Assembly: GCF_000377565.1 (NCBI RefSeq)
Contig: NZ_KB898369.1
Span: forward strand, 1-64,000
DNA from: Rhizobium sp. 2MFCol3.1
GTDB lineage: Bacteria > Pseudomonadota > Alphaproteobacteria > Rhizobiales > Rhizobiaceae
Length of the DNA: 64,000 nt
Direction of reading: 5' to 3'
The notes beneath the pieces are model-generated. The model worked only from the letters and a program-made list of their open reading frames with translations, was not told where the DNA came from and made no database searches. Shown one piece after another: positions 2,563 through 23,689 of the stretch; the first letter of the stretch is position 1; the number at the start of each line of letters is the position of its first letter. Position numbers and translations under genes: made by a program.

Positions 2563-3759
2563 TCAAATTGAGAGGGCCGGATACTGAGGCAGGTCTGCCG
2601 CTTCCGCATTGCCCGCAAAGAGGCCGCCTGACACCTTTTGCAGAGATTGCGAAGCCATGATGCGAAGGACTCCGTGAAGCGCGGCAATGCCCATTCGGGT
2701 GCGCGGATGCACCAGCCTCGGCACGATCTTTGGAATTCCTTGGGCTTTCTTGACGAACGGCCGCATGACGTTCTCGTATTTACGGAATGCGTCCTCGACA
2801 TCACCGTTTGTCGCAAGTTCGCCGGCCAGCACGTAGGCGCCGCAGATAGCGAGCGTCGCCCCGACGCCGCCCAAAGGCGTGACGCACCACGCCGCGTCTC
2901 CGAGCAGCACCACCCTGCCCCGCGACCACCTCGGCATCTGAACCTGCCTCAGGACGTCAAGATAGAAGTGCTGCGTCGTCCCCATTGCATCAAGGACACG
3001 CGCCGTCTGCCAACCGGCATCGCGGAACTCGTTGCGAAGCCACGCCTTCTGGCGGCTCTGATCCCAGCTTGCTTCGTCACCGTTCTTCCTATGGATCGCG
3101 AGGTTCGCCCGCATCGTTCCGTGCATGTCGGGACGGATCGAGACGCTTCGGCAGCCGGGGGCGTTGAACCAGCGCCATAGCTGGTCGTCACCTTCTTCCC
3201 GCGGGATTGTGAAATAGGCCATCGTCATGTCCATCCAGCGCGGATTGTTCTGGCCGCTGAAAACCAGATCGCGCGTCGAGGAGCCGACGCCTTCCGCTAC
3301 GAGGACGATGTCATACTCCTCATTCGTACCGCTCTCGAAGCTAACGGAGATGCCCCCGCTGGCGGGGGAGACTGACTTGATTGTCTCGCCGAAACGGAAG
3401 TCCGCCCGCGCGCGAGCCGGCTCGTAGAGGAGACCCGATAGGTCGCCTCGCAGGATTTCCATCTCGGCCGTCGGACCGTCTGCGCCGAGTTTTTCGGTGA
3501 CGATCTTCGCGACCACGTCATCGTTTTCGTCGACCCAGGCTATCCCCGTCTCGCCGGTGCCGAGAGCGAGCGCTGCGTCTTCCAAGCCCATCAGTCGTAG
3601 GACTTTGCGGCCCTCGCCGCGCACGTCGACGTTCTGCCCGCCGTCGCGGAACTCTGAAGCCTTCTCGATGACGGTGACGTCGAAGCCGTTTCTGCCTAGC
3701 CACCAGGCTGCAGCGCAACCAGCGATGCTGGCACCTGAGATAAGAACGGTGCGTGCCAT
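2563..3759 (-). CDS. FAD-dependent monooxygenase / oxidoreductase
   Basis: A 398-residue flavoprotein of the PHBH/TetX-like class A monooxygenase group. It shows the N-terminal dinucleotide-binding motif GASIAGCAAA (residues 9-18) followed by an acidic strand end (VTVIEKA), a VAEGVGSSTR motif near 155-163, and the second FAD motif GDAAWCVTPLGGVG near 287-300. Length is normal. Enzymes of this group hydroxylate aromatic or polyketide substrates with NAD(P)H and O2; the substrate here cannot be inferred. It lies just downstream of a small rhizobial gene on the same strand and upstream of the broken HAD gene. Confidence 0.9.
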   Translation of the reverse strand: MARTVLISGASIAGCAAAWWLGRNGFDVTVIEKASEFRDGGQNVDVRGEGRKVLRLMGLEDAALALGTGETGIAWVDENDDVVAKIVTEKLGADGPTAEMEILRGDLSGLLYEPARARADFRFGETIKSVSPASGGISVSFESGTNEEYDIVLVAEGVGSSTRDLVFSGQNNPRWMDMTMAYFTIPREEGDDQLWRWFNAPGCRSVSIRPDMHGTMRANLAIHRKNGDEASWDQSRQKAWLRNEFRDAGWQTARVLDAMGTTQHFYLDVLRQVQMPRWSRGRVVLLGDAAWCVTPLGGVGATLAICGAYVLAGELATNGDVEDAFRKYENVMRPFVKKAQGIPKIVPRLVHPRTRMGIAALHGVLRIMASQSLQKVSGGLFAGNAEAADLPQYPALSI

Positions 3760-22572: not shown

Positions 22573-22877
22573 TGTTCGCTCTGGCCCACTTTCAAGGAGA
22601 AGTCGATTTGAATGACCTATGCAGGAAGCGGCATTCGCACAAGGGCCGCAACAGGTTGATTTCAGGGCCCGCTCGCCTAGCTCCCCGAGGGCCGGTCTGA
22701 ACGACTTGCGAGGCTCACGCGGGAGGCGGCCATGAGCATGTCGTGGTAGTCTCAAACATCTGCGACCCCTCGGAGTTCCAAGGCCGTTGCTCTCAGGCCC
22801 GTCCATATCCAGCCACTTGAAAACAATCACTCGCATGCGCACATGAACATTAGAAGAACGTGATCAGGAGCTATTTT
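22573..22877. other. intergenic region between divergent genes
   Basis: Contains the EcfG-type promoter for the ABC operon (22755-22779) and the ribosome site of the small gene at 22878. Nothing else recognised. Confidence 0.4.
22755..22779 (-). promoter_or_regulatory. EcfG-type promoter for the ABC/AttH operon
   Basis: Minus strand GGAAC (22779-22775), N16, TGTT (22758-22755). It lies about 180 bases before the ATPase start codon, so the mRNA leader is long. Confidence 0.55.
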
Positions 22878-23117: not shown

Positions 23118-23559
23118 AGAAGGACGCGTTTGACGACATGGTGAAGGTGTAGCCGCGTAGACATTGCATAGCACCAAAAAGCTCGAGCCGTAGCGCTCTT
23201 TGACCGATCAAAACCAGATGGCGATGCCACGCTCTTTATCAGTGGAATTGCGATTGGATTGCGCTGCAATTTTGAAATCCTGGACTGGCCTCACGTACGG
23301 CCTCGGTGTTTGGAAGGTTACGGCTGAGCCAAAACAGAGACTGACTAAAACGATGACGGTTTACGCATGGTGGGCTTGGAGGGCGCGGCGGTTGTCGGCG
23401 CCGGTCATGCCAGAGTCTCTTGGGCAGAAGATCTACACGTCTTAGGCGAAACCGTCCCCAGCACGACAAAGGCGAAGGGCGCTGGCACCTTGTTTCACGC
23501 ATGTGCATAGGGCGGCCTTTTCCCTCACCTCGACAGCACCCTACGCCCGATTTTACGCA
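23118..23559. other. non-coding stretch
   Basis: No convincing coding frame. Located between the small gene at 22878 and the terminator of the predicted sRNA. Confidence 0.4.
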
Positions 23560-23657
23560 AAAGAAAAGCCCACGACGTGGAGGCGTGGGCTTTTCAGATC
23601 TCTGCTGTTGAGGGGCTAGCAGAGTGAACAGATCCCCGAGTTCAACAGGTCTATTCG
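23560..23657 (-). ncRNA. candidate EcfG-dependent small RNA (~95 nt)
   Basis: A stress-type promoter (23665-23689, minus strand) points into a region without a coding frame that ends 100 bases later at a textbook Rho-independent terminator (23594-23564, followed by U-rich sequence). The predicted transcript starts at about 23657. Its 5' half folds well: CTGTTGA (23648-23642) pairs with TCAACAG (23611-23605), extended after a 4-base bulge by GGGG (23637-23634) with CCCC (23615-23612). A 10-base linker CAGAGATCTG can make a mini-hairpin. The terminator loop contains CCUCC, an anti-Shine-Dalgarno motif typical of rhizobial and other alphaproteobacterial sRNA loops. This suggests an sRNA that blocks ribosome binding on target mRNAs during stress. 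I cannot match it to a named family from memory. Confidence 0.6.
23564..23594 (-). terminator. Rho-independent terminator of the candidate sRNA
   Basis: Perfect 11-bp stem AAAAGCCCACG/CGTGGGCTTTT with a 9-base loop. On the minus strand it is followed by CTTTTC-type U-rich sequence, so termination is strongest in that direction. No coding gene ends here. Confidence 0.85.
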
Positions 23658-23664
23658 ACTTGTT

Positions 23665-23689
23665 AACTCAGTTCTCGGTCGAAGGTTCC
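23665..23689 (-). promoter_or_regulatory. EcfG-type promoter for the candidate sRNA
   Basis: Minus strand GGAAC (23689-23685), N16, AGTT (23668-23665). There is no coding gene downstream before the terminator at 23594-23564. Confidence 0.65.

What the first reader, a model, noticed from the sequence alone, without database searches (positions are those of the whole stretch)
23560..23689. Candidate general-stress small RNA with CCUCC terminator loop
An EcfG-type promoter (23665-23689, minus strand) with no gene behind it runs into a perfect 11-bp terminator (23594-23564) followed by a U-rich run, giving a transcript of about 95 nt. The 5' part forms an 11-pair stem (7 + 4 with a bulge). The terminator loop carries CCUCC, which could pair with Shine-Dalgarno sequences. 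In Caulobacter the GSR sRNA GsrN is sigma-T dependent; whether this is a related or new RNA is open.
Basis: partly seen in the sequence, partly recalled or inferred. Interest (0 to 1): 0.85.

Follow-up and report, generated by a model that had tools for sequence, protein, structure and literature searches.

The report
Accessory stress-sigma small RNA in Rhizobium
A bacterium of the genus Rhizobium carries, in a region rich in stress-gene promoters, a short RNA gene with its own general-stress promoter; close copies sit in unrelated places in a few relatives, which suggests a real regulator that resembles, and probably derives from, the core stress RNA GsrN.

Summary
On the minus strand an EcfG-type promoter (GGAACC-N16-GTT, 23689-23665) leads into a ~98-nt predicted RNA ending at a 12-bp intrinsic terminator. 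Rfam has no match. The main evidence is conservation. The unit is in 5 of 148 genomes of the genus, at three locations: between locations the RNA aligns at 88-96%, while 800-bp flanks give no alignment. All five keep GGAACC and GTT at the same spacing although the spacer differs, and the 33-nt terminator block, CCUCCACGU loop included, is identical in all five. A divergent relative with the same promoter offset lies on a conjugative plasmid of Rhizobium sp. BG4. Separately, the genome's GSR locus holds a GsrN/ReC64-type RNA, matched in 148 of 148 genomes. The window RNA is not directly detected by its model, but the BG4 copy scores with both models, so the window RNA is probably a diverged accessory relative. 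Likely mechanism, by analogy: EcfG-induced expression in stress, then pairing of C-rich loops with G-rich/Shine-Dalgarno sites. I have no expression or target data, and covariation is not above shuffles. New member of a known kind.

The parts
23684..23689 (-). EcfG-type -35 element GGAACC
   Evidence: invariant in 5 of 5 close homologues
23665..23667 (-). EcfG-type -10 element GTT (spacing GGAAC-N17-GTT)
   Evidence: invariant in 5 of 5 close homologues while the spacer sequence varies
23560..23658 (-). predicted small RNA (~98 nt; start inferred from promoter position, not mapped)
   Evidence: homologues; no ATG in any of the five close copies and no shared start-to-stop frame
23626..23656 (-). 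hairpin 1, 7 + 4 pairs, loop UUGAACU
   Evidence: 92.7% of cells paired over 5 sequences, 2 pairs with double changes (1)
23600..23624 (-). hairpin 2, 7 pairs, loop AGCCCCUCAAC with exposed CCCCUC (23615-23610), the C-rich loop shared with the BG4 relative and with GsrN's middle hairpin
   Evidence: unpaired probability 0.97-1.0 for the CCCCUC bases
23563..23595 (-). intrinsic terminator, 12-bp stem, loop CCUCCACGU (23583-23575)
   Evidence: 33-nt block TGAAAAGCCCACGCCTCCACGTCGTGGGCTTTT identical in 5 of 5 close homologues
23559..23567 (-). U-rich terminator tail TTTTCTTTT (its first five bases, 23567-23563, lie in the terminator stem)

Best explanation
A trans-acting small RNA gene of the alphaproteobacterial general stress response. 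Under stress PhyR frees the sigma factor EcfG from NepR (established for the pathway); EcfG-RNA polymerase starts from 23665-23689 and makes a ~98-nt RNA of three hairpins that stops at its own terminator. C-rich loops (CCCCUC in hairpin 2; CCUCC in the terminator loop) then pair with G-rich sites, most often Shine-Dalgarno regions, of mRNAs and change their translation or stability, as GsrN does through its C-rich loop. The gene is an accessory, diverged relative of the core GsrN/ReC64 RNA and lies in a region packed with EcfG-type promoters, so it probably tunes or competes with GsrN when that region is present. Shown here: promoter and terminator sequence, structure prediction, conservation at three unrelated loci, coexistence with a GsrN-type RNA. 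Supported but not proven: descent from GsrN. Inferred: expression, EcfG dependence, targets, direction of regulation.
For: Homologues in 5 of 148 genus genomes, the own one included. Between the three loci the RNA aligns at 88-96% over 66-95 nt and the 800-bp flanks give no plus-strand blastn alignment; G000/G022 share a downstream flank and G150/G015 share both flanks. GGAACC and GTT are kept at the same spacing in 5 of 5 with a variable spacer. The terminator block is invariant; 96.7% of structure cells are paired, against 37-53% for slid controls. BG4 plasmid copy a: R1 30.1 bits with the EcfG site at exactly the same 4-nt offset, the only one of 54 fetched weak R1 hits with such a site upstream; with the promoter-inclusive model R3 it scores 33.6 bits, while the best other hit in 346 family genomes is 28.4 (stricter filters) and none of the 20 fetched R3 hits has an EcfG site upstream on its strand. 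The GsrN model R2 scores the same copy 38.9 bits, E 2.6e-8 in 58.9 kb, full length. GsrN-type RNA beside kinase-PhyR-NepR-EcfG in this genome; R. etli ReC64 at that place was shown by others to be EcfG-dependent (PMC3892343, section 21 read). GsrN acts through a C-rich loop (PMC5869019, passages). 37 EcfG-type sites on 144 kb of the contig against about 4 expected from the reversed control.
Against: No expression data. Covariation does not exceed shuffles (85-99 of 500 reach it). R2 finds nothing in the window and R1 finds no GsrN, so the GsrN link rests on one intermediate; a terminator of the same form alone scores 22.0 bits with R2 (L115, positions 95-125), so perhaps 17 of the 38.9 bits come from the rest. 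blastn finds no alignment between BG4 copy a and any of the five. R1 alone scores unrelated terminator regions up to 33.6 bits, above the BG4 copy's 30.1. Hairpin 1 lacks GsrN's 5' C-rich loop. G015 has lost the UC of CCCCUC. Within the G150/G015 locus the unit (87%) is no better kept than its flanks (81-91%). Two of the three BG4 copies have no intact promoter. BG4 copy a contains an ATG frame of 34 codons that stays open to the end, so a peptide is not excluded there.
Confidence: 0.66

Rival explanations
1. An EcfG-dependent sRNA unrelated by descent to GsrN: an independently arisen GSR RNA that only shares the promoter class and C-rich loops.
For: R2 does not hit the window and R1 does not hit GsrN; hairpin 1 lacks the 5' C-rich loop of GsrN; terminators with a GCCCTCG-type loop recur in Rhizobium (L105, L109, L114); three further units of EcfG-type site, structured RNA and terminator, unrelated by eye, sit on the same contig, so GSR sRNAs may arise easily.
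Against: BG4 copy a scores with both models over full length, shares the CUCUGC/GCAGAG and GAAAGCCCACG/CGUGGGC stem sequences with the window RNA and the terminator loop with GsrN.
Confidence: 0.25
2. A 5' leader or attenuator of the downstream ABC-transporter operon (next gene on the minus strand; possible starts at 22842, and about 22572).
For: Same strand, 0.7-1 kb upstream.
Against: A further EcfG-type site at 22779 stands nearer that gene. In three other genomes the RNA lies at other loci (ku/ligD, named by eye, in two; a third context in G156). On the BG4 plasmid the lipocalin/ABC region matches at 86% at 291-296 kb, the match ending near window 23130, while the RNA copies are at 183, 621 and 678 kb. 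The terminator pairs with probability near 1.
Confidence: 0.04
3. A bidirectional terminator plus a chance EcfG-like match; no RNA gene.
For: GGAAC-N17-GTT is common by chance (181 reversed-control hits genome-wide); the hairpin could terminate both strands.
Against: Promoter elements are invariant in 5 of 5 close homologues despite a changed spacer and unrelated flanks, and hairpins 1 and 2 are kept.
Confidence: 0.03
4. A small mobile element (MITE-like) that happens to carry a promoter and a terminator.
For: Three loci in five genomes and three copies on one BG4 plasmid.
Against: No exact inverted repeat longer than 8 nt between the 200 bp on either side, and the conserved unit stops at the promoter and the terminator. 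Target-site duplications and empty sites were not tested.
Confidence: 0.06

Closest known systems
GsrN (Caulobacter crescentus), PMC5869019
   Same: Transcribed from a sigma-T/EcfG promoter, short, structured, with an exposed C-rich loop; there shown to pair with a G-rich mRNA site (katG).
   Different: GsrN's active C-rich loop is in the 5' hairpin, whereas here hairpin 1 has no C tract and the C-rich loops are hairpin 2 and the terminator; not at the GSR locus. Its sequence was not compared directly here.
ReC64 / rhizobial GsrN at the phyR locus (R. etli), PMC3892343; here the RNA at G000:C2 (L118:~3010-3138)
   Same: EcfG promoter, middle hairpin exposing UCCCCUC, C-rich terminator loop.
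   Different: Matched in 148 of 148 genomes against 5 of 148; different 5' domain; CM R2 does not detect the window RNA. That the L118 RNA is ReC64 is inferred from position and promoter; letters were not compared.
alpha-r14 / NfeR1 (Sinorhizobium meliloti), PMC10746234
   Same: Three hairpins with CCUCC-type anti-SD loops.
   Different: alpha-r14 carries CCUCCUCCC in each of three hairpins and a sigma-70 promoter with LsrB/NtrC control (passages); here one CCUCC, one CCCCUC and an EcfG promoter.
RpoE2-dependent sRNAs of S. meliloti, PMC3616915
   Same: Same regulatory logic: sigma-E2 motifs upstream of 23 sRNAs, some on pSymA and pSymB (passages).
   Different: No sequence comparison with those RNAs was made; no strong match to R3 in the other 345 family genomes drawn.

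Membership tests
EcfG/GSR-dependent sRNA (functional class) | EcfG -35/-10 elements at the right spacing before the RNA | tested here: met
   5 of 5 close homologues and BG4 copy a; not in BG4 copies b and c
EcfG/GSR-dependent sRNA (functional class) | expression lost without EcfG | not testable with these tools
   needs a mutant; shown by others for ReC64 (PMC3892343, section 21)
EcfG/GSR-dependent sRNA (functional class) | non-coding | tested here: met
   no ATG in any of the five close copies and no shared start-to-stop frame; BG4 copy a does have an open ATG frame of 34 codons
GsrN family | sequence/structure match to rhizobial GsrN (model R2) | tested here: not met
   no hit in the window up to E 10
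GsrN family | linked to GsrN through an intermediate | tested here: inconclusive
   BG4 copy a: R2 38.9 bits, R1 30.1 bits, R3 33.6 bits
GsrN family | 5' hairpin with C-rich recognition loop | tested here: not met
   hairpin 1 loop is UUGAACU in the window
GsrN family | position beside ecfG-nepR-phyR | tested here: not met
   that locus is on C2 with its own RNA; the window RNA is on C17. C. crescentus gsrN itself is also distal (PMC5869019, passages)
GsrN family | processing to a stable 5' isoform, Hfq effect | not testable with these tools
   -
alpha-r14 / NfeR1 | CCUCCUCCC in three hairpins | tested here: not met
   motif absent from the sequence as read
alpha-r14 / NfeR1 | sigma-70 promoter | tested here: not met
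   no sigma-70-like consensus match at this place
any Rfam 15 family | score at or above gathering | tested here: not met
   0 matches in the window; best sub-threshold E 0.095

The most novel reading that the evidence does not exclude
Accessory replicons of Rhizobium carry their own diverged GsrN-type RNAs (here, and on BG4 plasmid pRPC2) together with clusters of EcfG-controlled genes (ku/ligD, CsbD, trehalose genes). An incoming plasmid would thus bring both a stress regulon and a post-transcriptional regulator that rewires, or competes with, the host's core GsrN.
Probability: 0.35. Interest if true: 0.66.

Novelty: new member of a known kind. Interest (0 to 1): 0.44.

Why it matters
GSR-controlled sRNAs are known in Alphaproteobacteria, including some on the S. 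meliloti megaplasmids (PMC3616915, passages). What is less usual here is an accessory RNA, found at several unrelated loci among stress-promoter clusters and beside Ku genes, in a cell that also has a core GsrN-type RNA to which it is probably related. That gives a testable case of how accessory DNA plugs into, and may alter, a host's stress network. The invariant C-rich loops and the BG4 bridge point to which nucleotides to mutate first.

Tried and rejected
Rfam membership: not met (the GSR-locus RNA also has no Rfam match up to E 1). ABC-operon leader: rejected by different neighbours elsewhere. Chance promoter beside a bidirectional terminator: rejected by conservation. A wider family: R1 over 297 and R3 over 346 family genomes gave only weak hits besides the window itself; both calls scored few candidates per genome with stricter filters, so weak relatives can be missed. 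blastn over 394 family genomes gave three weak matches, not related on inspection and without an EcfG site nearby. The genome contigs pattern scan returned 11 stretches: three are known copies (L125, L130, L133), one is a different Mesorhizobium unit (L127), seven look like chance. Weak R1 hits: 54 of 104 listed places were fetched and checked for an EcfG site, one had it; the other 50 were not checked. Is the own contig a plasmid? BG4 RepABC has no tblastn hit on the 144 kb read, so undetermined. The annotated plasmid collection holds no match to the window RNA or the G150 RNA. Literature listings: searches (9 papers; 9), GsrN (8), RpoE2/sRNA (6; 8), ReC64 (3; 34, 20 listed); none of the listed titles or abstract starts describes this RNA, but subscription papers are not held and supplementary sRNA tables were not open to me. 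NHEJ under GSR control in rhizobia is recalled; one search did not confirm it.

Full report
1. The thing itself. Minus strand, 23689 to 23559: GGAACC-N16-GTT, then a transcript of about 98 nt inferred from the promoter position, in three hairpins. Hairpin 1: 23656-23626, 7+4 pairs. Hairpin 2: 23624-23600, 7 pairs, loop AGCCCCUCAAC. Terminator: 23595-23563, 12 pairs, loop CCUCCACGU, then TTTTCTTTT, which overlaps the last stem bases. The fold is more stable than all of 200 shuffles (z -4.84). In the ensemble the CCCCUC bases of hairpin 2 are unpaired with probability 0.97-1.0; in the terminator loop UCCAC is open and the first two C are open about half the time. None of the five close copies contains an ATG and no start-to-stop frame is shared; BG4 copy a, the divergent relative below, does have an open ATG frame of 34 codons.

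2. Is it more than chance? The promoter pattern alone is not: 250 matches in the 6.55-Mb genome against 181 for the reversed pattern. The neighbourhood is unusual: 13 GGAAC-N17-GTT sites in the 64-kb window and 37 in the 144 kb of the contig that I read, where about 1.8 and 4 are expected from the control. Several stand before plausible genes, such as a DUF2934 protein (Pfam), a KGG-repeat protein (by eye) and TreZ.

3. Conservation. BLASTN over 148 genomes of the genus finds the RNA in 5, the own genome included; 394 family genomes gave three weak matches that are not homologues on inspection. G000 and G022 share one locus. G150 and G015 share another, with ku genes on one side and ligD on the other (genes named by eye). 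G156 has a third. Between loci the 800-bp flanks give no plus-strand alignment, while the RNA aligns at 88-96% over 66-95 nt. The promoter spacer differs, but GGAACC and GTT at constant spacing are in 5 of 5, and the 33-nt terminator block with its loop is identical in 5 of 5. Pairing: 96.7% of 150 cells, against 37-53% when partners are slid by 1-3 columns. Covariation is slight: 2 pairs with double changes, reached by 99 of 500 shuffles. Within the G150/G015 locus the unit is no better kept than its flanks. That the genus is Rhizobium is inferred from BG4 being in it.

4. A divergent relative. Model R1 (five sequences, promoter excluded) scores the five at 104-122 bits, and the next place in 148 genomes at 32.5. 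Of 104 weaker places listed I fetched 54; one, L051, has an EcfG site upstream, at exactly the same 4-nt distance from the match start as in the window. The expected number by chance at that exact offset is about 0.001, from the site frequency. It lies on the 790,983-bp plasmid pRPC2 of Rhizobium sp. BG4, typed conjugative, which carries two further copies without an intact promoter. Neighbours are CsbD, BON, PAS and HWE-kinase genes (copy a) and Ku genes (copy b). The same plasmid holds the window's lipocalin/ABC region at 86%, away from all three copies. Model R3, with the promoter, gives copy a 33.6 bits and nothing above 28.4 bits in the other genomes of 346 family genomes. Copy a keeps the CUCUGC/GCAGAG and GAAAGCCCACG/CGUGGGC stems, but its terminator loop is CCGCCCU, and blastn does not align it to any of the five.

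5. The core GsrN. NepR marks the GSR locus at G000:C2 (Pfam match). Beside the kinase, PhyR, NepR and EcfG (kinase, PhyR and EcfG named by eye) stands another EcfG promoter with a structured RNA and terminator. This is the kind of place where Tien et al. put rhizobial GsrN (PMC5869019, passages) and Jans et al. showed ReC64 to be EcfG-dependent (PMC3892343, section 21); ReC64 was over-expressed in saline shock in another study (PMC4167512, passages). It has a match in 148 of 148 genus genomes, with the EcfG promoter read in 30 of 30 fetched loci; position was checked in G000 and G131 only. Model R2 built from it does not find the window RNA but scores BG4 copy a at 38.9 bits, E 2.6e-8, over its full length; a terminator of that form alone gives 22.0 bits (L115, same call). 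So copy a bridges the two, and common descent is likely but not proven.

6. How it probably works. Stress frees EcfG, and EcfG makes the RNA. The exposed CCCCUC (hairpin 2) and CCUCC (terminator loop) pair with G-rich stretches, most often ribosome-binding sites. GsrN activates katG through such pairing and NfeR1 represses through CCUCCUCCC (PMC5869019, PMC10746234, passages); the sign here is unknown. With SD-complementary loops I expect mostly repression. Since GsrN of the same cell is predicted to expose UCCCCUC, overlapping targets are plausible. All of this paragraph on the window RNA is inference.

7. Verdict. Very probably a real GSR small RNA gene of accessory character, not described in the searches listed under Tried and rejected: a new member of a known kind, probably a diverged relative of GsrN.

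Noticed in passing
window 610, 11335, 15568, 25962, 35205 (+); 42006, 35180, 33233, 30465, 25713, 22779, 14894 (-): Twelve further GGAAC-N17-GTT sites; with the finding's own, 13 in 64 kb against about 1.8 expected. The contig (37 in 144 kb) looks like a stress-regulon island.
   Followed up: partly
L224:14628 and 15135 (+), L226:11149 (+) (contig C17 98628, 99135, 135149; outside the window): Three more units of EcfG-type site, structured C-rich RNA and terminator on the same contig, two of them in tandem; unrelated in sequence to this one by eye. The tandem pair has one partial plasmid match, 72% over 156 nt.
   Followed up: partly
L121:4582 and 4234 (-), Rhizobium sp. BG4 pRPC2: Two EcfG-type sites in tandem upstream of BG4 copy a, each followed by a GC-rich hairpin by eye, the second also by a strong terminator: possible further GSR RNAs.
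   Followed up: no
L127:3092-3182 (-), Mesorhizobium sp. YM1C-6-2: EcfG-type site with, about 40 nt downstream, a strong terminator-like hairpin whose loop reads UCUCCCCUCAG: a separate candidate GSR RNA.
   Followed up: no
L004:538-1500 (G022): About 960 bp with a Gly-rich repeat ORF (272 aa) sit between the RNA promoter and the upstream flank that directly adjoins it in the window: insertion in one or deletion in the other.
   Followed up: no
L105:1437-1554 (+) (G150:C43): Weak full-length matches to R2, R1 and R3 (19.9, 16.8 and 18.7 bits), with GGAACC upstream but no GTT at the right spacing: perhaps a decayed copy.
   Followed up: partly
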